From contig NZ_NFMB01000010.1 of the NCBI RefSeq assembly GCF_002161215.1, positions 124,001 to 188,000 of the forward strand: a stretch of 64,000 bases of DNA, given 5' to 3'. Of the stretch, positions 11,666 through 40,153 are shown piece after piece. Made by a program: the position numbers and the translations under genes. The notes below the pieces were generated by a model. It had not been told where the DNA came from, ran no database searches, and saw nothing but the letters and a program-made list of their open reading frames with translations. Source of the DNA: Flavonifractor sp. An10 (GTDB lineage: Bacteria > Bacillota > Clostridia > Oscillospirales > Oscillospiraceae). Every line of letters starts with the position of its first letter. Position 1 is the stretch's first letter.

Positions 11666-12394
11666 TCACCTCAATTCTGTAAAAGGGTCGTGCTCCGTCT
11701 CCTCCAAGGCTTCCGCCGCCCCGGCCGGCCGCAAGCCCACCGCACGCTCTTCCACGGCGCGGTAGCCGTACTGCCGGTGGATCGGGCTGAACGAGAGGGG
11801 CAGATCCCGCTTGGGGACCGCCCCAGGCTGTCCCGGGTCAGCATCTATCACGATGCGGCAGGAGGTCCGGGCTCCATCTGCCGCCTGCGGCGGCTCCGAC
11901 CGCAGGGCGTCCAGCAATTTTCCCTCTCGAATGCCCAGGCAGAGGGGCATCGTGGGAGGGCAGGAGCGCCGCCCCAGGAACAGGGGGAAGGCCGGGCGGC
12001 GCAGCGCCTGTTCCAATCGCTCCAGCAGGGCGCGGTCGGCGCTCTCCAAACCCGCCAGGAATATCGCGTCAGATAGGTATTGGCGCTTCGTCACATAGGG
12101 GGGCAAGGGGGCTTTCCGGGCGGCGCGGGCTTTCTCCACCTCGGCCGGTGTCGGATTTCCCGCCGTGTGAAAGTCCACCAGCAGGCTGCCCTCCCGATCT
12201 ACCCGGACGGCAAAGCGCAGCTGCCCCAGCTCCTGCAGGGCATCCGCCTCATCTCGGCGCAGGCCCAGGGCCGCCGCCAGCAGGCCGACAACCCCGCTCT
12301 TTGTGGGCTCTCGGTCGGTTTTCCGAATCTCGAATTTGGAGTCCGCGCCCCAGGACTGCAGCGGTGCAGCCAGGCGCAGCAACAGCGTGGCCAT
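11666..12394 (-). CDS. cas5e: Cas5e (CasD), Cascade subunit binding the crRNA 5' handle
   Basis: Cas5e caps the 5' handle of the crRNA in Cascade. The 242-aa protein starts MATLLLRLAAPLQSWGADSKF, the diagnostic Cas5e N-terminus, followed by the TKSGVVGLLAAALG segment. The frame is open upstream to 12535, but that part encodes no family sequence; the ATG at 12394 shares one base with the cas7e stop (TAATG), so translation is coupled. The LPLSFSPIHRQYGYRAV segment near residue 205 is also conserved in the family. Confidence 0.96.
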   Translation of the reverse strand: MATLLLRLAAPLQSWGADSKFEIRKTDREPTKSGVVGLLAAALGLRRDEADALQELGQLRFAVRVDREGSLLVDFHTAGNPTPAEVEKARAARKAPLPPYVTKRQYLSDAIFLAGLESADRALLERLEQALRRPAFPLFLGRRSCPPTMPLCLGIREGKLLDALRSEPPQAADGARTSCRIVIDADPGQPGAVPKRDLPLSFSPIHRQYGYRAVEERAVGLRPAGAAEALEETEHDPFTELR

Positions 12395-13467
12395 TATGCC
12401 ACCCCATTCCCATCCAGGCAGGTGGCCACTGCGCCCCGCAGCGCGTCCAGCATCTGACCCAGGGGCTGGGCGTCCGCCAGCGTTTCCAGACCCATCCCGA
12501 CGGTAAAGGCCCGCTTCGGCGCGTCGGCATAGCACTGGTAGACCTGCTGGGCGTACTGAACCAGGCGCCGGCAGGAGGGCGCCACAAATCCCTCTTCCGA
12601 AGGAGGCACCGCCTTCTCGAAGGCGCCGCAGAGGTTCACGGGCTGGTCGTCCCGCAGGGCTACATAGACCGCGTCAGGCAGTGTGCGGTTGGCGAAGGTA
12701 TTCTGCTTCCCAGTGGGCATAGAGCGGATCATCGCCTCTGCAAAGGCTCGGACCACATCCGGGACGGCAGCGCGGCCCAGATGCTTCTCCAGCTCCAGGG
12801 CGTTCACCGTGGCATAGCGGTAGAGGGTGGCGGAGTTGTACTCTACCGTGCCCAAGTGGCCAGCGCCTGCATTGTCCTCCGGGGCCAGGTCATCCATAGC
12901 GGTGAAGTAGTCGTATTCGTTTTGTACGGCGTGGGTGGAGATGCTGTGGGCCACCTGGGCGGCGGCGTCATAGTTCAGGGAAGGGTCGCTGGCGACCATG
13001 CGGCCAAACAGGACCATATCCACCGATGGCGCGGACTTGATGGCGCTTTTGTACTCTTTTGCCTCTCCGCAGCCATTTACGGCCAGCTGCGCCAGCGCCC
13101 TGGCCTGGGCGCGGCTCATGAAAAACAGCGCGTCAGTGCCCTTCTCCTCGGTCACCTTCTTCAAGCCTGCGCTCTCCAGGGCTTTCTTGGCCAGCTTCGG
13201 GGCATCCGCGTCCGGCGCAAGGGCGGTGACCTCCTCTGCTACCATGGCGACAATCTTCTTCGTCCGCTCTCCGAGCTGCTCCCGCCCCAACAGGCCATCG
13301 CGGAACATCATCCGCACCGCCCGCTTCCAAGCCTGAGAGGAGACCCGGGCGCGGGTGGTCCCACCGTAGATGGCGGTCTTGGGGCTGCCGGTGTCATCCC
13401 GGTTGACGCAGCTGGGCGGCACTGTCTGCAAGATGTGAAGGTCGATGTAAAGGCGCCTGTTATCCAT
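12394..13467 (-). CDS. cas7e: Cas7e (CasC), Cascade backbone subunit
   Basis: Six copies of Cas7e form the Cascade backbone along the crRNA spacer. The 357-aa product has the family signatures YIDLHILQTVPPSCVNRDD at the N-terminus, RARVSSQAWKRAVR near residue 45, and ALYRYATVNALEL / PTGKQNTFANRTLPD in the second half. Length is standard. The ATG at 13467 overlaps the cse2 end by 8 bases. Confidence 0.97.
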   Translation of the reverse strand: MDNRRLYIDLHILQTVPPSCVNRDDTGSPKTAIYGGTTRARVSSQAWKRAVRMMFRDGLLGREQLGERTKKIVAMVAEEVTALAPDADAPKLAKKALESAGLKKVTEEKGTDALFFMSRAQARALAQLAVNGCGEAKEYKSAIKSAPSVDMVLFGRMVASDPSLNYDAAAQVAHSISTHAVQNEYDYFTAMDDLAPEDNAGAGHLGTVEYNSATLYRYATVNALELEKHLGRAAVPDVVRAFAEAMIRSMPTGKQNTFANRTLPDAVYVALRDDQPVNLCGAFEKAVPPSEEGFVAPSCRRLVQYAQQVYQCYADAPKRAFTVGMGLETLADAQPLGQMLDALRGAVATCLDGNGVA

Positions 13468-14062
13468 AGTTCGTCTCCTCCTCTATCTGATCGTTTTCGG
13501 ACGGGATTGCGTAGAAGTCCTGCCCCCAGCGCAGGCGGACCTGTGACGCGCTGTCCGGGAACTGGAGGTAGAACAGATCCTTCGCCAGCTGTGCGTAGCC
13601 CAGCGGAACCTCTGCGGCGCGCAGGAGCTGGATCATCCCACGCAGATGCTGAGCAATCTCCCGTGTCTGTGCAGCGGTGGCCAGGGCGTTGAACCGCCGC
13701 TGGATGCTGCTGTCCGCTGGGTCCTCCCCTTGGGGTACCAGGCGACGTACCGCCTGACCAAGACCCACGCCCTGCCGGTTCATGTCATCCCCGGGCAGTG
13801 TGTGTCCCTGCTGGTGCAGGGCGTAGAGGGTCAGCGCCAGGTAGATCGCCCATTCCCCCTGGGTTGGCTTTCCCGTCTGACTCTCCAACTCCTCCGGCAT
13901 CCCCTCCAGGAAAATGCCCCAGAGCTCCGGCAGGTCGCCGGGGGCGCGCCCCACGCCCCGCCGCAGATGGGCCAGGGCCGCCTTTCTCGGGTGCTCCGGC
14001 AAATCCCGCAGCCAGCGCAGACGCCGGGCCACATATTGCTCGATCCGCTGTGCCTGTGACAT
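13460..14062 (-). CDS. casB: Cas11e (Cse2/CasB), Cascade small subunit
   Basis: Cse2 forms the dimeric belly of Cascade that stabilises the displaced strand. The 200-aa alpha-helical product (MSQAQRIEQYVARRL...) has the family segment SIQRRFNALATAAQTREIAQ and ends with YGQDFY-like WGQDFYAIP. The frame stays open upstream, but the ATG at 14062 has AGGTGG 6 bases ahead and lies 2 bases after the cas8e stop, so it is chosen as the start. Confidence 0.95.
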   Translation of the reverse strand: MSQAQRIEQYVARRLRWLRDLPEHPRKAALAHLRRGVGRAPGDLPELWGIFLEGMPEELESQTGKPTQGEWAIYLALTLYALHQQGHTLPGDDMNRQGVGLGQAVRRLVPQGEDPADSSIQRRFNALATAAQTREIAQHLRGMIQLLRAAEVPLGYAQLAKDLFYLQFPDSASQVRLRWGQDFYAIPSENDQIEEETNYG

Positions 14063-14064
14063 GC

Positions 14065-18551
<4,487 letters not shown>

Positions 18552-19009
18552 TGTTAAGCAGACCACCCGCCATTCTGCACAATTCTGAAAAGTCCAGTTA
18601 GTTACCCTAGCGTCTAATTCAGGACTAAGGTCAAGGGCCTTTGGCCGATACAGTTCAGATCTCAGCTAACTTTTTTGTATGAGTTTAAGTCCGCTTCCTC
18701 TGCTTCTTCATATACCACAAATTGCTCGGCACCTCCCGAACATGAAGCAGACCGCTTCTGACGGAACCGTTTCCCTGGTTCATCCTTCGCTCTATCCGCC
18801 CGCCGCCTCTATTATGAGGCGAATATTTTCCATAGATTGTGGTGATATTTTCCCTCGTGAAATGCATTTCTGCAAGGCACAAGATATAAAAGGGGTGATA
18901 AACTTTCATATCTATCCAGCCTGATCAGTTTGGGTGCGGTAATCAAAAATTCAAAATATTATCAATTATTTATCGGAAACCACAATCCGATCTATTTCGC
19001 CACACATTG
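18552..19009. other. Non-coding, AT-rich spacer upstream of the cas operon
   Basis: I see no supported gene here. The short open frames lack ribosome-binding sites and family sequence. Base composition is lower in GC than the flanks. The segment ends at a third copy of the island's terminal repeat. Confidence 0.5.
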
Positions 19010-19056
19010 GGGGGATGCGAAATTGCGGCACCCGGGATTAATCCCGGGTGCCGCAA
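19010..19056 (+). repeat. Internal copy of the island's left-end repeat
   Basis: Preceded by TG, it reads GGGGGATGCGAAATTGCGG and then a hairpin with 12-bp arms (19025-19036, 19043-19054). It has two substitutions against the left end at 6182 and the same orientation. The CRISPR-Cas locus is therefore bracketed by two direct copies, 12.8 kb apart. Confidence 0.75.
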
Positions 19057-19111
19057 GCTATGGCATCTGCTTTCTAGCTTGTATACTCTTTGCACTTTAT
19101 GTATAGCTCTC

Positions 19112-20707
19112 TTATAGCTCATTTTTTATTAGCAAGTTAAACAGCTCTAGCACAAGAAAGTCACATTGCATCGCAGGTAAAATCTTTTTATCGAAGTTAT
19201 CGTTCACTTGCCTTATGACGGTCTTGTCCAATGTCTGTTCAACCGTGGTGCCAACTGCGGATGTTGCTGCGCCAATTCCTTCGCTCAGAGCGCCAATCCC
19301 ATACATTGCTGCACCGCCTATTTTTTTGCCAAGGGAGAGAATGGGTGGTGGCCCAATCTTAATTTCCCAGGGGTTCGCTCTGGGAGACTTCGTTTCCCAG
19401 AGCGATGCAGCCCCTTCTTTGGCAGAGCTTGAAAAATCCCCGACGGCTTCGCTCAACTTTTGCGAAAGATAGTCCTGCCTGCTTTTAGGGCTATGGCCCT
19501 TCTGCCATGTTTCTATATCTTTTCCTTTGACACTGCTCATTCCAGAATTTTTATAGACCTCAACAATTTCTTCGCGCAAATTGTCATTGATATCAGGAAT
19601 GGGGGAATAGTCTAAATAGATATAGGCTCCACTATATTCACTGCGAAGGATCCGAAAGTTGTATTTGCCTTTGTATATTGGCTTTTGGGCCACATTCTTC
19701 GCATCATTTGCCTCCTTTGAGGACGGGAAATAAATACAGTATTGACACCCATTCGGAGTGTCGGCAACCTCAACATTTATATCGAATAATTTGACTCGAA
19801 GTGCATTCGCACTTTTCTTTTCTATGCTGCTTTGAGGAGGAGATATGTAGACACGCAAACCCTGGACACCGATCTGTTCTGATGACGACGGCGTGTTAGA
19901 TTCATACGTTGAAGTATCTTCTTGATATTCCTTCAGCTTAATATCGTTCAAATCAAAATCCGCGAAATCTGGTCGATACTTTCCGTTTATAAAATATTCT
20001 GCGCCCATATTATCAGCTTCCCACAAAACGTTCTCTCTTATTTCCCTCCGCTTTACAGCAGAGATCGGAAGATAGTCCAAGAGTTCCTGCATGTTGGGAG
20101 GAATGTTCCCTTTTTCAAGGCATCCGTCGATGGCACACAACTCAAATGCACACCTACAAAACGCATTTGGGTGACTTGCTTTCTCGAGCTGTTCTTTTTC
20201 AAACTTACTCTCCGGCGTACGCGCATGCAAAAGGCCAAGTATGCTTCGCCGGTATTTTTGAAAATCTTCTGTTTTGTTATTTTGAGATTTGTACTCGCTC
20301 AGAAAGTGTTGGAGGACTGCAATTTCTTCTGGTTCAAAGCTGTCAATTTCTTCTTGCAGTTTTATTTTGCTAACACAGGTGTGGTATAACTCTTTTATGA
20401 CTTTATTAAGGTTCCCTATGAGAACCATATTTTGGTTCAACTTCTTGTTTAGATCCCTATAATTTTTTAGATATACTATCATAAAGAGCTGTTGAATCTG
20501 ATTCAAAGATATGATGTCGGAGATCATCATCTTTCTGTCACCGGAGCCAAACGTTACCGCCCTCAGTAGGTTGTGGTACCATTTTTCACGTTTGACCCGC
20601 TGAAAATCATTGCTCTGCAAGTTAAAAATCTGGCGCCACGCCGCCTCTATATCCTCCATCGTCAATTTATTCACATCTACGTGGATATCGTTTATCGTAC
20701 ACTTCAT
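19112..20707 (-). CDS. Unrecognised 531-aa protein, third gene of the WYL operon
   Basis: Not recognised. The N-terminal 250 residues look mostly alpha-helical and charged; the segment around FCRCAFELCAIDG...LDYLPISAVKRREI recalls TerB-like helical domains, a weak resemblance only. Residues about 280-400 are predicted mixed beta with a possible compact domain (LRVYISPPQ..., YNFRILRSEYSGAYIYLDY). The C-terminus holds a Gly/Ala-rich stretch (IGGAAMYGIGALSEGIGAA) that could insert in a membrane or form an amphipathic helix. ATG 20707 is preferred because GGAGGAG precedes it; ATG 20725 would add six residues. It follows the 455-aa gene by 21 bases, so is co-transcribed with it. GC content is lower than in the flanking core genes, consistent with transfer. 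Confidence 0.7.
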   Translation of the reverse strand: MKCTINDIHVDVNKLTMEDIEAAWRQIFNLQSNDFQRVKREKWYHNLLRAVTFGSGDRKMMISDIISLNQIQQLFMIVYLKNYRDLNKKLNQNMVLIGNLNKVIKELYHTCVSKIKLQEEIDSFEPEEIAVLQHFLSEYKSQNNKTEDFQKYRRSILGLLHARTPESKFEKEQLEKASHPNAFCRCAFELCAIDGCLEKGNIPPNMQELLDYLPISAVKRREIRENVLWEADNMGAEYFINGKYRPDFADFDLNDIKLKEYQEDTSTYESNTPSSSEQIGVQGLRVYISPPQSSIEKKSANALRVKLFDINVEVADTPNGCQYCIYFPSSKEANDAKNVAQKPIYKGKYNFRILRSEYSGAYIYLDYSPIPDINDNLREEIVEVYKNSGMSSVKGKDIETWQKGHSPKSRQDYLSQKLSEAVGDFSSSAKEGAASLWETKSPRANPWEIKIGPPPILSLGKKIGGAAMYGIGALSEGIGAATSAVGTTVEQTLDKTVIRQVNDNFDKKILPAMQCDFLVLELFNLLIKNEL

Positions 20708-20728
20708 CTTTTGTCTCCTCCCCACACC

Positions 20729-22096
20729 TCAAAACTTCAATTGGGCTGTTTTGTTGACCTCTTCTGTTAATCTGTCCAGATTTTCCTGCGTTTGGGCTTT
20801 TTGCCGTTCAACACTGCGGATCATAGTTATTGCCACCTGCGCAGTCTTCGCAGTTTCGGCCGAGGCCATGGCCAGTTCCAGTCGGGCTTTTCTAACGCCC
20901 ATCATCCAATCCGTAGATCCGGCTACCGCAAAGCGGACCACTCCAACATAATTGACGCGGAGGACAAACATCCCGATATTTCCGCCGGAGCGGACAGCGG
21001 CATCCGCCAGGTCTATCACTTCCATAACCCCTGTTGAAATGGTCAGCATGCGGACGATCGTGCGGTTTTTGATGGGGAGCGTATTTTTCCAGTTGACCTT
21101 ATGGAGGTCACCTATGCGCCTGACCTCATTTTCCTTGATTTCGCTAAACAGCCTCCGAATAAAATAGAACGCTCTCACAACACACTCATTTACAACCACC
21201 GGCAACGCCTGCCGTCCGAGCTCATGGGCGACCCCTATTTCTGTGCGCAGGTCAAATTTGATGGGTTCGACCACATTGCCGCTCGCATTCCGCCTGCCCA
21301 GCAGCGTGCCGTTAAACAGCTTGGAGATCCAGACCGAAAACTCCTTATAACCATTTTCATTCATCTTTCGGAATATCGGCAAGGCAGATATCTCTTTTAA
21401 CAAGGAGACGATTGGCCCGGGAAGCCCTGTCCCCACCTTCCCCTCGACAATGGAGCCATAGGAGCCGGCCATGTCGCTGACCATATGGAAAACCCAGTTA
21501 ATGACACCAAAAATCAATTTTTCTGGAAGATTCTTTCCGAGCAGGACAAGGTCATTTTCCTCCTTCAATGGCACGACCAAAAAATGTCCGGCAACGTCTG
21601 TTCCATAAACATTGCTAGTAAATTGCGTTAACATAGAAAAAATTAAGCCAACCGGTGTAGGGTGGTGTGAAAAGTCGCGGAGGTGGTGCGCGAAGCCCCC
21701 TCCAAAAGCATGTGTGGCCTTGTCTGCGGCAATCGGGAAGTTTTCTTCCAGATATTTTACGGCTCCCGCCAAATCATCCCCGCCATATCCACACATTTGC
21801 GCTACCTTGACCACAAATTTCTCCACTTGTTTATTGCCCCACTGATTGGCGCGTTCTATTGAAAATTCACCGACCCAAAGTACATCAATGATTCCGGCAA
21901 CGATCCCGCTTGCTGCCGCTACGGCGTAATCGACACCGTCTGCGGTGTTTGTAAGCCGCCCAAGTTCTCCAAGTGTTTCATGATAGGCGGTCTCGAACTC
22001 AGTCACTTTCTGGTCATGGTTATCGGGAAAACACAAATCATACTGAACACAAAGGCCCTCACAATCGGCAGTATGGGTGTAATGAGTCGTATTCAT
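20729..22096 (-). CDS. Unrecognised 455-aa protein, second gene of the WYL operon
   Basis: Not recognised. A hydrophobic stretch at about residues 57-75 (AVAAASGIVAGIIDVLWVG) could be a membrane helix, and a second weaker one lies near 190-210 (KLIFGVINWVFHMV). A striking His-rich motif, FAHHLRDFSHHPTPVGLIFSM (about 133-153), could bind metal or be catalytic. The C-terminal 60 residues are a probable coiled coil (VERQKAQTQENLDRLTEEVNK). The start ATG at 22096 is preceded by GGAGAGGG and lies 4 bases after the WYL gene stop. The tight packing with a WYL regulator and position next to CRISPR-Cas suggest a defence role, which is inference from context only. Confidence 0.72.
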   Translation of the reverse strand: MNTTHYTHTADCEGLCVQYDLCFPDNHDQKVTEFETAYHETLGELGRLTNTADGVDYAVAAASGIVAGIIDVLWVGEFSIERANQWGNKQVEKFVVKVAQMCGYGGDDLAGAVKYLEENFPIAADKATHAFGGGFAHHLRDFSHHPTPVGLIFSMLTQFTSNVYGTDVAGHFLVVPLKEENDLVLLGKNLPEKLIFGVINWVFHMVSDMAGSYGSIVEGKVGTGLPGPIVSLLKEISALPIFRKMNENGYKEFSVWISKLFNGTLLGRRNASGNVVEPIKFDLRTEIGVAHELGRQALPVVVNECVVRAFYFIRRLFSEIKENEVRRIGDLHKVNWKNTLPIKNRTIVRMLTISTGVMEVIDLADAAVRSGGNIGMFVLRVNYVGVVRFAVAGSTDWMMGVRKARLELAMASAETAKTAQVAITMIRSVERQKAQTQENLDRLTEEVNKTAQLKF

Positions 22097-22100
22097 ACGG

Positions 22101-23051
22101 CTATCCCTCTCCTTCTATATAGTCCCCCTGGCTCCTCAGCCACATCTCAATCCCCTTGCCGAACACCTCAGCTTGGACAGTATAAGCTCCGTCGTGCTCC
22201 TCCAGGATCTCCGCCGTGGGGAGGCGGTCCAGTACCGACTCAATGGAGGGCCCGGTGTAGACAAACTTCACGGTCTGGAGCTTTCCGCCGTACATGAACT
22301 GCACCCGTTTGCGGAACTCTCCCTCCTCAAAGCGGCCGCGGTAGGGTACGACGAAATGTTCATTAAGCACTTGAAAACTCTTGATCCGGTCCAACCGGTA
22401 GATGGTGGGAAAGAGGTCATCCGGGTTCTCAAAGTCTGTCCTGTCCTCCAGGAATGCCGTTAGATAGAAATAGTACTCGGAGAACATGAGCCCCACCGGC
22501 TGAACCCGCCGGCTCACCAGCCTGGGCTCCTTCATACGCTCGTAGGTGATCTCCATGACCTGCCGGTGCTTCACCGCTTGACCGATCTCCCACAAACCGT
22601 CCAGGATGTGTTTCCCGTGATGGGGCTCCACATAGTGGTGCTTCTCATTGGCGATCAGCTCGGTGACGGCCCGCTTGCTCTCCTCCGGCACGCAGCAGTC
22701 GATCAGCTTGTCCAGGATGGGCATCATCTCGTCCCGCCGCATGGAGCGGCTCTCCAGCAGGATCTTGCACACCGCCAGGATTTCGCTGTTGCTCAGCCCC
22801 CTCGGCACACTGTTGACCAGCTTGTAGGCCCGCTCGCGGCGGTCATAGACCACATCCTGGGGCAGCCGCTGCTCGGCCAGGAAGCACCGCAGAGACTCGA
22901 TATCCCGCTGGATGCTCCGCACAGCCACCCCGTATTCCCCGGCCAGGGCAACCCGGTTCAGCCCCTCTCCGGAGAGCAGGCGGGCATAGATCGCCAGCAG
23001 ACGAGCAGACTTTGCCTCCGGCAGATAGTCCAAAGCACTCCCCTCCCTCAT
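22101..23051 (-). CDS. WYL-domain transcriptional regulator
   Basis: 316 aa. Residues about 15-70 form a DeoR/HTH_11-type winged helix (YARLLSGEGLNRVALAGEYGVAVRSIQRDIESL), and residues about 155-235 are a WYL domain (VMEITYERMKE..., VQPVGLMFSEYYFYLTAF), followed by a WCX-like C-terminus. WYL proteins bind nucleic acid or nucleotide ligands and commonly control phage-defence operons (BrxR, CapW). It is first in a three-gene minus-strand operon and faces the HTH gene at 23158 across a 106-base AT-rich intergenic region, so it probably autoregulates from there. Confidence 0.92.
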   Translation of the reverse strand: MREGSALDYLPEAKSARLLAIYARLLSGEGLNRVALAGEYGVAVRSIQRDIESLRCFLAEQRLPQDVVYDRRERAYKLVNSVPRGLSNSEILAVCKILLESRSMRRDEMMPILDKLIDCCVPEESKRAVTELIANEKHHYVEPHHGKHILDGLWEIGQAVKHRQVMEITYERMKEPRLVSRRVQPVGLMFSEYYFYLTAFLEDRTDFENPDDLFPTIYRLDRIKSFQVLNEHFVVPYRGRFEEGEFRKRVQFMYGGKLQTVKFVYTGPSIESVLDRLPTAEILEEHDGAYTVQAEVFGKGIEMWLRSQGDYIEGEG

Positions 23052-23157
23052 GCGCTTTCTGTCAATTTTTTATATTTTATAGATATAATAATCTCATTAT
23101 CAAGTCATGTCAATCGCTGTCTTTCTTGGGTAACATAGATCACAGCGAGGTGATGGC

Positions 23158-23391
23158 ATGAAGCCAGAATATGAACCGGAATACCGCCAGATCGGCCTGA
23201 AGATCGCCTACTACCGCAAGCTCCGGGGCCTGACCCAGGAGCAGCTTGCGGAAAAGGTGGAGCGCACCCCCGCCTTCATTGGCCATATCGAGGCCCCCAA
23301 TATCAGCAAGGCGGTCTCCCTGGATACGCTGTTTGACATCGCCTCGGTACTGGATGTGCCGGCCTACAAATTCCTTCTGTTTGATGAATAA
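23158..23391 (+). CDS. Small Xre/Cro-type HTH regulator
   Basis: 77 aa, essentially one lambda-repressor-type helix-turn-helix (IGLKIAYYRKLRGLTQEQLAEKVERTPAFIGHIE, then SLDTLFDIASVLDVP). A ribosome site (GAGGTG) precedes the ATG. It is divergent from the WYL operon and may share its operator region, or may regulate element functions. Its target cannot be told from sequence. Confidence 0.9.
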   Translation: MKPEYEPEYRQIGLKIAYYRKLRGLTQEQLAEKVERTPAFIGHIEAPNISKAVSLDTLFDIASVLDVPAYKFLLFDE

Positions 23392-23522
23392 GCTATTCTG
23401 ACTCTAGTGTAGCAGATCAAGAGGACATCTGTTGTCACTCTGGAAAATTCCACGGAAAATTGTCAAAAGTCGCGGCTGCCTGGCCAACAACACAAAAAAG
23501 CGCACTACGCAGGGAAAATTTT

Positions 23523-23567
23523 AGGCTGTCCCAAAAGTCTCAGGAGACTTTTGGGACAGCCTTTTTC
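23523..23567 (+). terminator. Strong intrinsic terminator
   Basis: Arms of 18 bases (23523-23540 and 23545-23562, perfectly complementary) with a 4-base loop, then a T-run. It terminates the plus-strand HTH gene; the two small minus-strand genes end just downstream. Confidence 0.85.
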
Positions 23568-23576
23568 TGCGCCTGC

Positions 23577-23693
23577 TCAGTCATGCGCTTCGATAAAGTG
23601 ATCGATGGCCGCGCACAGCAGGGCCACCGCCGCCGCCAGAACTGCTGCTGTCAGCTTTTCCAGCGCCTCTTTGCGGCAGTTCACCCGGTTCAC
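23577..23693 (-). CDS. Hydrophobic 38-aa small protein
   Basis: Begins with GTG overlapping the TGA of the preceding 30-aa frame (GGGGTGA). The product has a charged start and a membrane-spanning stretch (LTAAVLAAAVALLCAAIDHF). Translational coupling to the upstream small gene is the main argument that it is real. Function unknown; a small membrane peptide, possibly toxin-like or phage-like. Confidence 0.5.
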   Translation of the reverse strand: MNRVNCRKEALEKLTAAVLAAAVALLCAAIDHFIEAHD

Positions 23694-23782
23694 CCCGCCA
23701 CTGTGGCGCAGGCTTTCCGAAGCAGCTGGTCCAGCAACTCCATAAGCAGGGCCCGAAGCATAGTGAGAAGTGTTTTCAGCAT
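23690..23782 (-). CDS. 30-aa leucine-rich small protein
   Basis: ATG at 23782 is preceded by GGAAAGGAG at good spacing. The product (MLKTLLTMLRALLMELLDQL...) is an amphipathic leucine-rich helix with basic residues near its end. It overlaps the next small frame by 4 bases. Function unknown; similar tiny proteins are common in gut Firmicutes mobile elements. Confidence 0.5.
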   Translation of the reverse strand: MLKTLLTMLRALLMELLDQLLRKACATVAG

Positions 23783-23941
23783 GTGTTTGCGCTCCTTTCC
23801 CCCAAAATAGAAAGATACCGGAAAGCCACTGCTGCGCTGAACGGGCGGTACTTTCCGGCATCTCGTGAATATAATATATGGACAAAAGGGACAGGAAAAC
23901 CCAACAGGGGATTAAATAACCAAAGGGAGGTTTTGAAAGAA

Positions 23942-24172
23942 ATGTGGGACAGGAACGATCTTGCGCTTTTGGAATCGGAAAAGCTGGAGCGGCTCCCTGT
24001 CATGCTGACCCCGGCAGAGGCCATGGACATCCTGCACGTTGGGAAGAACACCATCTACCGTCTGCTGGCCTCCGGTGCCTTACAGGGCATCCGCATCGGG
24101 CGGAGCTGGCGGATCTCCGGAGATGCCCTGGAGTACTTTATGCTGGGCGTCCCCGATGACAATCTGCGCTAG
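23942..24172 (+). CDS. Excisionase-type HTH DNA-binding protein
   Basis: 76 aa with a MerR/HTH_17-like fold: LTPAEAMDILHVGKNTIYRLLASGALQGIRIGRSWRIS. Proteins of this family bend DNA as recombination directionality factors, or act as small regulators. The ATG at 23942 has GGGAGG 11 bases upstream; the frame continues upstream without family sequence. Its stop overlaps, tail to tail, the end of the minus-strand gene at 24169. It might be the directionality factor for the serine recombinase at 27322 (inference). Confidence 0.8.
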   Translation: MWDRNDLALLESEKLERLPVMLTPAEAMDILHVGKNTIYRLLASGALQGIRIGRSWRISGDALEYFMLGVPDDNLR

Positions 24173-25986: not shown

Positions 25987-26302
25987 ACCACAAAAATTTT
26001 TTATATTATATTTTCATTTCAACCAAATCTTATTATTAAAAGTTGAAGCGCCGTCTCACGTAAATCTTAAAATGGACGCATCTCCTTGCCATAAAAAATC
26101 AGACCTCCGGGGACAGAGCATATCATACGCACCCTATGTCCGGTGATACAACTGCCTCAAACGAACGGTGTTTACTTTTTCATGAGCATAGTACAGCGTC
26201 TTAACGGGGACCCTGGGTGAACACGATTGGCTCTTACATGGCCATGAGTTGTTCCCCTGGCGTAATGTAGACCCCATAAATCTATCTAAAGGAGTTTTTT
26301 AT
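25987..26302. other. Intergenic region upstream of mobilisation genes, candidate oriT
   Basis: A 316-base gap with no gene. Between 26190 and 26275 there are short inverted sequences (GGGGAC near 26205-26215 against GTTCCCC near 26249-26256, and a CATGGCCATG palindrome near 26237-26247). Directly ahead of MobC- and relaxase-like genes this is where an oriT is expected. No nic site can be assigned by eye. Confidence 0.3.
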
Positions 26303-26578
26303 ATGGGAAGTTCAAGAATTTATACCTTAAGAATACTCGTTTCCGACGACGAGAAATTAGCAGTTGAACATGCCGCAGCTGACTTTGGCAGCTGTGTCTC
26401 CGTCTACGTCAGGCACAGGCTACTCGATCAGGAAAAACCACAACTCACCGGAAAAGAACGTCAGAACACGGTTGCGGCACTCTGTAATCTGTGCAGGCTG
26501 ACCGGGGAAATTTCCGGCGAGGCGCTGCGGGCGGACATTGAAAAGGAGGTGGCCGAACTATGGCGACTTTTAGAGTGA
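26303..26578 (+). CDS. MobC-like relaxosome accessory protein
   Basis: 91 aa. The N-terminal part (YTLRILVSDDEKLAVEHAAADFG) resembles a ribbon-helix-helix segment as in MobC/relaxosome proteins, followed by a charged helical tail (GEALRADIEKEVAELWRLL). AAAGGAG lies 8 bases before the ATG at 26303. It overlaps the relaxase-like gene by 19 bases, the usual arrangement of mobilisation pairs. Confidence 0.65.
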   Translation: MGSSRIYTLRILVSDDEKLAVEHAAADFGSCVSVYVRHRLLDQEKPQLTGKERQNTVAALCNLCRLTGEISGEALRADIEKEVAELWRLLE

Positions 26579-27048
26579 TCCATGGCCCCCAAAAGTACCA
26601 CGACGATGGAACTTACGCGGATCTGATACGCTATGTGACATCTCCACAAAAGGTCAGGCCCGGCGGTGTCATTGGCGCCGCGGTGCTCCCCGAGGTGGCG
26701 GAGCTTGCCATGGAAGCAGTCACCGCCGCCTATCATAAAGAGAATGGAGTTAAGCTGAGACACACCGTCCTCAGCTTTGACTCGGAAGAACAGATGGATT
26801 TCCAGACTGCAAAGGTGGTCGCACAGAAGATCATGAAATTCTACGATCCCCGTTACCAACTGATAGGTGCAATCCATGAGGACAAACCTCATCTTCATAT
26901 CCATTTCCTGATGAACTCCACCAATTACCGAACTGGCCGCAAGTACTATGGGACCAAACAGGATTACTATGCTAACCTCAAGTATATCAACACCGTCACC
27001 GAGGAGCATGGCATCCACACCATTGCTGCGAAAGGCGAAACAGAGTAA
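26560..27048 (+). CDS. Short relaxase (mobilisation nuclease domain)
   Basis: 162 aa covering only the nuclease domain of MobA/VirD2-type relaxases. The N-terminal half holds a candidate Tyr nucleophile (YADLIRYVTSP), and the metal-binding HxH is in EDKPHLHIHFLMNSTNY (about residue 108-125). Typical relaxases are 350-600 aa with a C-terminal helicase, primase or coiled-coil region, absent here. Short relaxases of this form occur in gut integrative mobilisable elements, so it may be complete. It depends on a helper conjugation system, none of which is in the window. Confidence 0.8.
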   Translation: MATFRVIHGPQKYHDDGTYADLIRYVTSPQKVRPGGVIGAAVLPEVAELAMEAVTAAYHKENGVKLRHTVLSFDSEEQMDFQTAKVVAQKIMKFYDPRYQLIGAIHEDKPHLHIHFLMNSTNYRTGRKYYGTKQDYYANLKYINTVTEEHGIHTIAAKGETE

Positions 27049-27155
27049 TTTTCTCATTGGTCGATTTTCATAGATCCTCGTATGTCATTACCGAATATAC
27101 TCCGGCTACAACCACATATTATTTTAGAGAATGCACTCAGAAAGGAAGGTTCACT

Positions 27156-27281
27156 ATGAAGACAGCCGCACATCCACAGCAGACGAATTTGCAATTTACT
27201 TGGCGGGTATCCCGCTGCTTTGACGGTGACAAGACTCCGGAAGATCTGCTCCGGGCACTGATTCAGGCCCACAGCAAGTAA
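27156..27281 (+). CDS. 41-aa small protein upstream of the serine recombinase
   Basis: A good Shine-Dalgarno (AAAGGAAGG) precedes the ATG. The C-terminal part, SRCFDGDKTPEDLLRALIQAHSK, is nearly identical to that of a 39-aa protein encoded before the second recombinase copy (48270-48389). Conservation of protein sequence next to both recombinases indicates a real gene, perhaps a recombination accessory factor. Function unknown. Confidence 0.65.
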   Translation: MKTAAHPQQTNLQFTWRVSRCFDGDKTPEDLLRALIQAHSK

Positions 27282-27321
27282 CCTTTGATACATAACTGCG
27301 ACGGAAAGGAGGTGGGCGGTC

Positions 27322-28863
27322 ATGGAAACCTGGAAGACAGCGGCGTATCTGCGCCTGTCCCGGGAGGACGGCGACAAGGTAGAGAGCGACAGCATTGCCA
27401 ACCAGCACAAGCAGCTGGAGCAGTATCTGGCGGAGCATCCGGAGCTGGAACTGGCGGACTACTATGCGGACGACGGCTATACCGGCACCAACTTTGACCG
27501 CCCCGCCTTCCGCCGCATGGAGGAGGACATCCATCAAGGGAAGGTCAACTGTGTGCTGGTGAAGGATCTGTCCCGCTTCGGCCGGGACTACATCGAGGTG
27601 GGACGCTATCTGGAGAAGGTTTTTCCCGCACTGGGGGTGCGCTTCATCGCCGTCAACGACCACGTGGACAGCGAGCGGGGGCGCTATGATATGCTACTGC
27701 CCATGAAGAACCTGTTCAACACCCAGTACGCCCGGGACATCTCGGACAAGGTGCGCTCCGCCATCCACACCAAGCAGCGGCGGGGTGAGTTTGTGGGGGC
27801 CTTCGCCAGCTACGGATACCAGAAGGACCCGGACAACCACAACCATTTGTTGATTGACCCTCCGGCGGCCCAGGTGGTACAGCGGATCTTCGACCTCTTT
27901 GAGCAGGGCGAGGGAAAAGTCAGGATCGCCAAGCTGCTCAATGCGGAGGGGGTTCCCAGCCCCAGTGAGTACAAGCGGCTCTCCGGTGAGCGCTACCACA
28001 ACGGCCGGCGGCTGGGACAGGCCACCTACTGGACCTACGCCACGGTCCACCGCATCCTGCAAAACCAGATGTACGTGGGGGATATGGAACAGGGGCGCGC
28101 CTTACGCCCCACCATGCACGGCAAAGCAAAACAGAAGGCGCGGGCAGACTGGACGGTGGTTCCCCACACCCACGAGGCCATCATTGACCGTGCCCAGTGG
28201 GAGCGGGTGCAGGAACTGCTGGGCAAGCGGACCCGCCAGTTGAATTTTGAACAGAACCAGAGCCCCTTCGCCGGCTTCCTCCGCTGCGGCGACTGCGGGC
28301 GGGCCATGGTCAAGACCCGGAGCGCCGGCGGCATCTATTACAGCTGCGGCTCCTACAAGCGCTATGGCCCCACCGTGTGCAGCAAGCACAGCATCTCCCA
28401 CAAGGTGCTGGAGGAGATCGTGTTGGCGGATCTCAATCGCATCATCGCCGCCGTCCAGGACTGGAAGAAGCTGGCCGACGAGCGGGCGGAGTGCCCCCAG
28501 CGGAATTTTCAGGCGGAGCAAAGCCGGCTGGAGATCAGTCTGGAGCGGATACGGGAACGCAAAAAGCGCGCCTATGAGGACTACCAGGACGGCCTGCTGG
28601 GCCGGGAGGACTATCTCCGTTACCGGGAGGACTATGAGCGCCAGGAGAAAACGCTCAACGCTCAGCTGGAGCAGCTCGCCCAGGCCGGGGGGTCCGACCC
28701 GCTGCACCACCCCTGGGTGGAGGCACTGCTCCGCTACGGGAAGCTGACCGAGCTGGATCGCGTCACCGTGGCGGAGACCATCAAGCAGATCCGGGTCTTT
28801 GGGGATGGACACATTGAGATTACATATACCTTCTCCAATGAACTGGGGCTTCTGGAGGCATAG
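27322..28863 (+). CDS. Large serine recombinase
   Basis: 513 aa. N-terminal resolvase catalytic domain with the nucleophile in AAYLRLSRED (Ser about 13) and VKDLSRFGRDYIE; then the recombinase domain (GYQKDP..., YWTYATVHRILQNQMYVGD), a zinc ribbon (CGDCGRAM ... CGSYKRYG..CSKH, about residues 320-350), a coiled coil, and the C-terminal tail. Enzymes of this TnpX/TndX-like family integrate and excise elements with a 2-bp crossover. It is a good candidate for moving the island, although it lies 6.7 kb inside the right end. A copy about 96% identical by eye lies in opposite orientation at 46664-48223. Confidence 0.95.
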   Translation: METWKTAAYLRLSREDGDKVESDSIANQHKQLEQYLAEHPELELADYYADDGYTGTNFDRPAFRRMEEDIHQGKVNCVLVKDLSRFGRDYIEVGRYLEKVFPALGVRFIAVNDHVDSERGRYDMLLPMKNLFNTQYARDISDKVRSAIHTKQRRGEFVGAFASYGYQKDPDNHNHLLIDPPAAQVVQRIFDLFEQGEGKVRIAKLLNAEGVPSPSEYKRLSGERYHNGRRLGQATYWTYATVHRILQNQMYVGDMEQGRALRPTMHGKAKQKARADWTVVPHTHEAIIDRAQWERVQELLGKRTRQLNFEQNQSPFAGFLRCGDCGRAMVKTRSAGGIYYSCGSYKRYGPTVCSKHSISHKVLEEIVLADLNRIIAAVQDWKKLADERAECPQRNFQAEQSRLEISLERIRERKKRAYEDYQDGLLGREDYLRYREDYERQEKTLNAQLEQLAQAGGSDPLHHPWVEALLRYGKLTELDRVTVAETIKQIRVFGDGHIEITYTFSNELGLLEA

Positions 28864-40057: not shown

Positions 40058-40153
40058 GCGGCACCCGGGGCCTATCCCGGGTGCCGCAATTTCACATCAC
40101 CCCAGGGTGATGTGAAATTGCGGCCCTTGGGGCTCTAAGGCTCCAGGAACCGC
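40058..40153 (-). repeat. Head-to-tail junction of the island-end repeats
   Basis: Holds an inverse copy of the left end (hairpin 40058-40087, then AATTTCACATCACCC to 40102), the dinucleotide CA (40103-40104), and an inverse copy of the right end starting GGGTGATGTGAAATTGCGG at 40105. The 20-bp arms 40083-40102 and 40105-40124 are a perfect palindrome around CA. On the minus strand this is right end, TG, left end: the joint expected for a circular or tandem form of the same element type. Confidence 0.75.

What the first reader, a model, noticed from the sequence alone, without database searches (positions are those of the whole stretch)
19112..23051. WYL regulator plus two unrecognised proteins: candidate undescribed defence operon
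A WYL regulator, a 455-aa protein with a HHLRDFSHH motif, a possible membrane helix and a coiled coil, and a 531-aa protein with a helical, faintly TerB-like N-terminus and a Gly/Ala-rich C-terminus are packed within 4-21 bases of each other. They sit between CRISPR-Cas and mobilisation genes. WYL proteins regulate BREX, CBASS and other defence operons; neither effector matches a defence family I know.
Basis: inference. Interest (0 to 1): 0.75.

Follow-up and report, generated by a model that had tools for sequence, protein, structure and literature searches.

The report
Bunzi-like defence operon with new partner
The operon is a relative of the known bacterial anti-phage system Bunzi: one of its two proteins is the known Bunzi protein BnzB, but the other is an almost unique partner, and related bacteria pair BnzB with many different partners, several of which look as if they act on membranes.

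Summary
The three packed genes exist as described. The claim that neither effector matches a defence family is half wrong. The 455-aa protein is BnzB of the Bunzi anti-phage system (PADLOC E=4.6e-56; 51 of 51 aligned family members match). The partner (537 aa from GTG, 531 from ATG) matches no library meaningfully and is not BnzA. Its N-terminal ~285 residues recur once: in an uncultured clostridium BnzB, this domain and a DUF697 domain form one 1349-aa protein directly behind a homologous WYL gene. That fusion links partner to BnzB. Among the 80 closest BnzB loci I find at least seven architectures, none with BnzA. In Flavonifractor sp. An82 (same genus) the HTH+WYL block is 89% identical in DNA, but BnzB is 49% identical in protein and the partner differs. 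Best reading: a WYL-controlled, Bunzi-type abortive-infection operon with an exchangeable, membrane-directed partner. Defence is inferred from homology; mechanism is untested; TerB in the 537-aa protein is unconfirmed; WYL precedes BnzB in only 5 of 80 loci. New variant of a known kind.

The parts
23158..23391 (+).
   Evidence: PF01381 E=4.1e-9; block 22115-23449 is 89.4% identical to Flavonifractor sp. An82 and about 70% to two other WYL loci with other cargo
23085..23113 (-). Probable sigma-70-type promoter of the operon (TTGACA-17-TATTAT)
   Evidence: 11 of 12 consensus match, the best of 13 sites found in 18500-23600 (shuffles mean 5.5); TTGACATGA and TATTATAT are identical in the four related control regions aligned; a consensus match only
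22101..23051 (-). WYL-domain transcription regulator, 316 aa
   Evidence: PF13280 4.6e-11; PADLOC WYL 1.2e-21; relatives lie directly before BnzB in L069, L077 (An82), L089, L095, L037 and L036
20729..22096 (-). BnzB, 455 aa, with invariant H137/H144/H204/D208 (HHLRDFSHH ... NWVFHMVSD)
   Evidence: PADLOC BnzB E=4.6e-56; 51 of 51 aligned family members match BnzB; conservation; model pLDDT 89.5
19112..20725 (-). Partner protein, 537 aa: N-terminal helical domain about 1-285, unique C-terminal part 286-537 with a Gly/Ala-rich stretch (457-490) and a hydrophobic C-end (515-533)
   Evidence: Residues 11-284 homologous to residues 569-839 of a BnzB fusion in L069 (E=6.7e-55); no match in Pfam, NCBIfam, PHROGs, and only a chance-level one in PADLOC (0.011); composition
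19023..19056 (.). GC-rich hairpin just behind the operon (15-bp stem); perhaps the transcription end, but without a T-run
   Evidence: -33.6 kcal/mol, z -5.67, 0 of 200 shuffles as stable; the terminator scan does not list it; a matching hairpin lies just behind the BnzB operon in An82, and each of the two genomes has two exact copies of the pattern in all

Best explanation
It is a Bunzi-type anti-phage operon of an unlisted subtype. Shown: gene order HTH <- control region -> WYL -> BnzB -> 537-aa partner; BnzB is homologous to the Bunzi protein; the partner's N-domain also occurs fused to BnzB. Inferred: WYL (perhaps with the divergent HTH protein) keeps the operon low until infection or DNA damage; BnzB, with its invariant His/Asp set, is the shared core, probably metal-binding, that holds or licenses the partner through the partner's N-domain; on infection the partner's C-terminal part, or its equivalent in other subtypes (GA-rich hairpin, C-terminal membrane anchor, DUF697, dynamin-like GTPase), acts on the cell membrane and stops the infected cell before phage release.
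For: BnzB identity. Fusion BnzB + partner N-domain + DUF697 directly behind a homologous WYL. At least seven partner architectures among 80 loci, many with membrane-type features; dynamin-like partner PF00350 9.5e-18; M48 3.9e-14 and TerB 1.3e-7 in an example of the three-gene subtype. Shared control block with different cargo. WYL family precedes other PADLOC-listed genes (LeoA-like, PDC-M09B, PDC-M40B). Bunzi is listed as a defence system with a TerB domain in PMC10952713 (passage). WYL repressors of defence operons: PMC9122601 (abstract and passages).
Against: No phage test of this operon. The 537-aa protein matches no BnzA model; its C-terminal part matches none of the modules of the other subtypes by profile comparison, and its model is poor (mean pLDDT 45.4). 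The BnzB model matches no solved fold convincingly (best Z 6.8), so metal binding and any enzyme activity are inference from conservation only. The partner domain is known from two genomes only. WYL is not a fixed companion of BnzB: directly upstream in 5 of 80 loci at E<=1e-5; and 5 of 10 downstream proteins scanned behind WYL relatives had no PADLOC match at 1e-5. Enrichment of defence genes around BnzB loci was not measured, and two relatives lie beside housekeeping-like genes.
Confidence: 0.58

Rival explanations
1. Same Bunzi-related operon, but the effector is BnzB itself (an enzyme with a metal site), and the variable partners are infection sensors or anchors that bring BnzB to a membrane or to phage components.
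For: E117, D125, H137, H144, H204, D208 identical in 51 of 51 look like an active site; the part that varies between loci is the partner, as expected for sensors under phage pressure; 12 of 13 coiled-coil partners measured (of 14 in that class) end in a membrane-anchor-like segment.
Against: No enzyme family or fold was found for BnzB; several partner parts (DUF697, dynamin-like, GA-rich hairpin) resemble membrane modules more than sensors.
Confidence: 0.25
2. Not phage defence: a WYL-controlled stress or membrane-repair operon that shares BnzB.
For: TerB, DUF697, M48 and dynamin-like proteins also occur in membrane stress pathways (recalled); two relatives sit beside housekeeping-like genes; no assay was done here.
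Against: BnzB is a listed defence protein; patchy distribution (10 of 398 phylum genomes; 3 of 20 in the genus); presence on plasmids (23 of 72,556 records) and in one phage record; the window's neighbours are cas and mobilisation genes.
Confidence: 0.12
3. The 537-aa gene is a chance neighbour and only WYL+BnzB form the system.
For: The 537-aa protein has no library match and its C-terminal half is so far unique.
Against: 3-base spacing and, above all, fusion of its N-domain to BnzB in another member of the order with a homologous WYL directly upstream; both known copies of the N-domain (2 of 394 genomes of the order) are tied to BnzB.
Confidence: 0.05

Closest known systems
Bunzi (BnzA + BnzB; Millman et al. 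2022, recalled, paper not held; Bunzi named in PMC10952713, passage seen)
   Same: BnzB protein (E=4.6e-56); two-protein core in one operon
   Different: Partner is not BnzA by the PADLOC model (no match at E up to 1); partner lies downstream of BnzB, whereas BnzA lies upstream in the one Vibrio and one Lactococcus plasmid copy examined; WYL and HTH genes added
Uncultured Clostridia E05__bin99 locus (L069 = G673:C36)
   Same: Homologous WYL 6 bases before BnzB, same partner N-domain (40% identity)
   Different: BnzB and partner are one 1349-aa protein; C-terminal part holds DUF697 (6.4e-13) instead of the window's unique part
Flavonifractor sp. An82 BnzB locus (G002:C59 = L007/L077)
   Same: HTH+WYL control block 89% identical in DNA, matching hairpin behind the operon, BnzB next to WYL
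   Different: BnzB 49% identical; partner is of the coiled-coil/membrane class and gave no match to the 537-aa protein
PADLOC candidate PDC-M09 (M09A/M09B)
   Same: M09A-like GA-rich proteins are partners of BnzB-family proteins in 8 of 80 loci and in a Lactiplantibacillus plasmid and a phage record; the same WYL family precedes M09B in An82
   Different: The window operon has neither M09A nor M09B
WYL repressors BrxR and CapW
   Same: WYL regulator at the head of a defence operon (PMC9122601, abstract and passages; CapW paper PMC9122588 seen in the search listing only)
   Different: Regulated cargo is Bunzi-related, not BREX or CBASS; repression was not tested here

Membership tests
Bunzi | BnzB protein | tested here: met
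   PDLC03834 E=4.6e-56; the only place in its own genome matched by the model
Bunzi | BnzA protein (PDLC03833) | tested here: not met
   537-aa protein has no BnzA match at E up to 1, while two plasmid copies of Bunzi match at 3.8e-177 and 1.2e-127
Bunzi | TerB domain in the partner | tested here: inconclusive
   no Pfam TerB match; residues about 120-250 are helical, mostly at pLDDT 70-89; no TerB structure among the rows shown; by profile only a weak link to the partner adaptors of L036 (probability 33%)
Bunzi | protection against phages | not testable with these tools
   needs a phage challenge
BnzB protein family | profile match and conserved His/Asp pattern | tested here: met
WYL defence regulators (BrxR/CapW type) | HTH plus WYL domain at the head of a defence operon | tested here: met
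   PF13280 4.6e-11; HTH_11 weak at 0.028, below its cut-off; position
WYL defence regulators (BrxR/CapW type) | repression of the operon, released on infection | not testable with these tools
   no expression data
PDC-M09 | M09A and M09B proteins | tested here: not met
   no match in the window operon's proteins at E up to 1

The most novel reading that the evidence does not exclude
BnzB is the fixed core of a large modular immune platform, of which Bunzi is one subtype: the core is combined with exchangeable partners (GA-rich hairpin fusions, TerB + GA protein with or without an M48 peptidase, tail-anchored coiled coils, dynamin-like GTPase, DUF697, and the new 537-aa type), and whole cargoes are exchanged behind a conserved HTH/WYL control block. 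The window shows a new partner class.
Probability: 0.5. Interest if true: 0.72.

Novelty: new variant of a known kind. Interest (0 to 1): 0.55.

Why it matters
A 2026 review lists Bunzi among systems whose mechanism is unknown (PMC12926258, passage). A core protein that keeps its His/Asp set while its partners change, with a natural fusion joining core and partner, gives direct experiments: swap partners on one BnzB, mutate the invariant residues, and follow the membrane. It also suggests that tools which require BnzA beside BnzB will miss relatives: none of the 80 loci closest to the window's BnzB shows a BnzA relative within the DNA held (tblastn E<=1e-5 with two BnzA proteins, and a two-sequence profile at 1e-3); these 80 were picked for likeness to the window's BnzB, so the share in all BnzB loci is not known.

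Tried and rejected
Searches without result: the 455-aa protein as a single sequence in IMG/VR; the 537-aa protein in IMG/VR, plasmids and phages and in 60 relatives, where only its own genome matched. PDB by sequence: nothing meaningful for either protein. Fold searches: 537-aa model best Foldseek E 0.44, best Z 4.4; BnzB model best E 0.21, best Z 6.8, at the level that the tool calls common for helical models; no TerB or hydrolase stood out among the rows shown, which excludes nothing. My idea that BnzB resembles YdjM/DUF457 or zinc phospholipases C came from recalled motifs; a Pfam scan of 51 BnzB members at E up to 10 did not list them among the 25 families shown of 64, so I dropped it. A shared WYL operator palindrome: no common inverted repeat with exact arms of 7 in nine upstream regions. 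The hairpin behind the operon is not specific to BnzB loci: a second copy lies at 40058 between ORFs that look like typA and a PucR-type regulator (those names are by eye). Rfam: no family at gathering level in 18400-23600.

Own errors corrected: one search used the wrong slice of L030 and was replaced; one search ran hhalign in a global mode and was repeated in local mode. I had judged by eye that the 537-aa N-domain matches the N-terminus of the L079 dynamin-like partner; profile comparison does not support this. The link to the L036 adaptors is weak (P 4.4e-4, best of eleven comparisons; 1e-3 in the other direction). My simple ORF caller picked an antisense ORF over WYL in L077 and L007, so the WYL count was redone by tblastn.

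Limits of counts: of 207 BnzB relatives found the best 80 were returned and studied. In one search each locus is counted once by its longest BnzB ORF (L054 has a second BnzB with a coiled-coil partner); L115 gave no BnzB ORF by my profile; six were unclassified (L043, L050, L067, L082, L096, L110); L098, counted as 'no M48', is cut by the contig end just where M48 would lie. Of 19 WYL loci fetched I ran PADLOC on one chosen downstream protein each from ten: 5 matched at 1e-5 (LeoA twice, once marginal at 2.7e-6; M09B; M40B; BnzB), 5 did not. The paper search for Bunzi/BnzB found 28 papers, mostly unrelated words; Millman et al. 2022 is not held. A defence-gene survey around the 80 loci was not done.
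Full report
OBSERVATION. WYL is a clear Pfam match. G+C is 0.47 over 18001-22000 and 0.55 over 22001-24000, against 0.62-0.65 over 12001-18000, where the cas genes lie.

IDENTITY OF THE 455-aa PROTEIN. PADLOC names it BnzB of the Bunzi system (E=4.6e-56); Pfam, NCBIfam and PHROGs give no meaningful match. A scan of GTDB species genomes found 207 relatives, of which the best 80 were returned. In an alignment of the window protein with sequences from 50 of these 80 loci, each of the 51 sequences matches the BnzB model; identities to the window protein are 27-57%. E117, D125, H137, H144, W201, H204, S207, D208 and several Gly/Pro are identical in all 51. AlphaFold2 gives a confident, mostly helical model (pLDDT 89.5, pTM 0.76) without a convincing match among solved structures. 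That the His/Asp set binds metal is inference.

THE 537-aa PARTNER. It matches no BnzA model, and its only PADLOC match is a chance-level one (0.011) to PDC-M45C. Searches of 60 relatives, plasmids, phages and IMG/VR gave nothing beyond its own genome. The single relative seen is in L069 (uncultured Clostridia E05__bin99): a 1349-aa protein in which BnzB (2-538) is followed by a domain matching residues 11-284 of the partner (E=6.7e-55) and by DUF697 (residues 1188-1312, E=6.4e-13). A WYL gene homologous to the window's (E=3.2e-151) ends 6 bases before it. With the two sequences as a profile, 2 of 394 genomes of the order carry the domain, the window's and G673; G673's contig has the same length as that of L069, so this is one and the same locus. 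Both known copies are thus tied to BnzB, one by operon and one by fusion. The C-terminal part (286-537) is unique so far: it has a Gly/Ala-rich stretch (0 of 2000 shuffles) and a hydrophobic C-end (515-533, hydropathy 1.69), but profile comparison does not join it to the modules of other subtypes. The model of this part is unusable (block pLDDT 21-40), while residues 120-250 form helices, mostly at 70-89. TerB-likeness is therefore open.

PARTNERS OF BnzB ELSEWHERE. I classified the 80 loci with profiles built from their own neighbours (k of 80): BnzB fused to a C-terminal region with a GA-rich hydrophobic hairpin 27; M48-BnzB fusion followed by a TerB protein and a GA-rich protein 16; BnzB followed by a coiled-coil partner 14; BnzB followed by an M09A-like GA protein 8; BnzB + TerB + GA protein without M48 4 (one of them, L098, cut by the contig end); M48 as a separate gene 1; M48 fusion with incomplete neighbours 1; dynamin-like partner 1 (L079); window-type domain 1 (L069); unclassified 6; no BnzB ORF called 1. 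M48, TerB and dynamin were checked in Pfam on examples (TerB in L078 and L040 fell below the cut-off, in L063 and L089 above it). Of 13 coiled-coil partners measured, out of 14, 12 have their most hydrophobic segment within four residues of the C-end; in An82 it is internal. None of the 80 shows BnzA in the DNA held. Classical Bunzi (BnzA, then BnzB) was seen on one Vibrio and one Lactococcus plasmid examined. Another genome of the window's genus (G015, L036) has WYL, a BnzB-like gene, a 638-aa partner, another BnzB-like gene and a 401-aa partner in a row (BnzB model E 7.7e-15 and 9.6e-26); the two partners are alike over about their first 210 residues and differ afterwards. The classes were made with models from the same loci, and the loci were chosen for likeness to the window's BnzB, so the counts describe this set only.

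CONTROL BLOCK AND CARGO. Compared with it, window 22115-23449 is 89.4% identical in DNA and a hairpin region behind the operon (19008-19057) matches at 88%, while nothing between aligned at DNA level at E<=1e-5. BnzB is 49% identical there in protein and the partner belongs to the coiled-coil class. Two further loci (An82 C12 and G006) share the HTH+WYL block at about 70% but carry other cargo: in An82 C12 an M09B candidate, in G006 an 831-aa protein without a PADLOC match. The block holds a divergent HTH_3 gene and a strong promoter match in front of WYL. I read this as cargo exchange behind a shared switch; the hairpin has one more copy per genome elsewhere, so it is not proof of a cassette border.

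WYL FAMILY. In 394 genomes of the order, 19 carry 21 copies at E<=1e-40. Among ten downstream proteins scanned, five match PADLOC entries and five do not. The window's own genome has a second copy (70% identical) in front of an operon whose first gene is dynamin/LeoA-like. On the other side, a WYL relative lies directly upstream of BnzB in only 5 of the 80 loci (L037, L069, L077, L089, L095) and downstream in one (L039) at E<=1e-5: WYL is an optional switch, not part of the core. This fits published WYL repressors: the abstract of PMC9122601 says that about half (48%) of BrxR homologues lie with known defence systems.

DISTRIBUTION AND CONTEXT. BnzB model matches: 10 of 398 genomes of the phylum, including two marginal ones and the window's; 3 of 20 in the genus. 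With the window protein: 23 of 72,556 plasmid records, 1 of 50,697 phage records; with the alignment, 1 locus in IMG/VR. This is patchy and partly mobile, as expected of defence genes. Against an easy defence-island story: G034/L008 and An82/L007 lie beside housekeeping-like genes (by eye), and I did not measure defence-gene enrichment.

MECHANISM. Shown: homology to BnzB, co-occurrence, fusion, variety of partners. Inferred: defence; repression by WYL; BnzB as core; partner as membrane effector. I put 0.58 on this reading and 0.25 on the reverse division of labour (BnzB the effector, partner the sensor or anchor).

NOVELTY. Bunzi is known; TerB is listed for it in PMC10952713 (passage), and a 2026 review counts it among systems of unknown mechanism (PMC12926258, passage). 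In the listings of my paper searches I saw no description of BnzB with M48, dynamin-like, DUF697 or the 537-aa partner; the library lacks most subscription journals, and the founding paper is not held. I call it a new variant of a known kind.

Noticed in passing
window 23158-23391 (+): Divergent 77-aa HTH_3 gene sharing the control region with WYL; the DNA block with both is conserved in An82 (two loci) and G006.
   Followed up: partly
L141 (G000:C13:28000-40000): The same genome has a second WYL regulator (70% identical) heading an operon whose first gene is a dynamin/LeoA-like GTPase.
   Followed up: partly
L036 4572-11097 (G015): WYL followed by two tandem BnzB-like/partner pairs whose partners are alike in the N-terminal domain and differ in the rest.
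   Followed up: partly
L089 3132-7295 and 15 similar loci: Three-gene variant: M48 peptidase fused to BnzB, TerB protein, GA-rich hydrophobic protein.
   Followed up: partly
L079 7227-10199: BnzB followed by a 990-aa dynamin-like GTPase (PF00350 9.5e-18).
   Followed up: partly
window 19023-19056 and 40058-40087: GC-rich hairpins with the same arms; exactly two per genome (exact pattern) in the window's genome and in An82, one of them behind the BnzB operon in each.
   Followed up: partly
window 26249-28863 (+): NikA-like protein, relaxase domain (only 162 aa in this frame) and serine recombinase beside the operon: probable mobilisable element.
   Followed up: no
L087: M48-type domain as a separate gene just upstream of BnzB, with a coiled-coil type protein two genes downstream.
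   Followed up: no
L029, L081, L085, L093: BnzB reading frames split into two ORFs: decayed genes or assembly errors.
   Followed up: no
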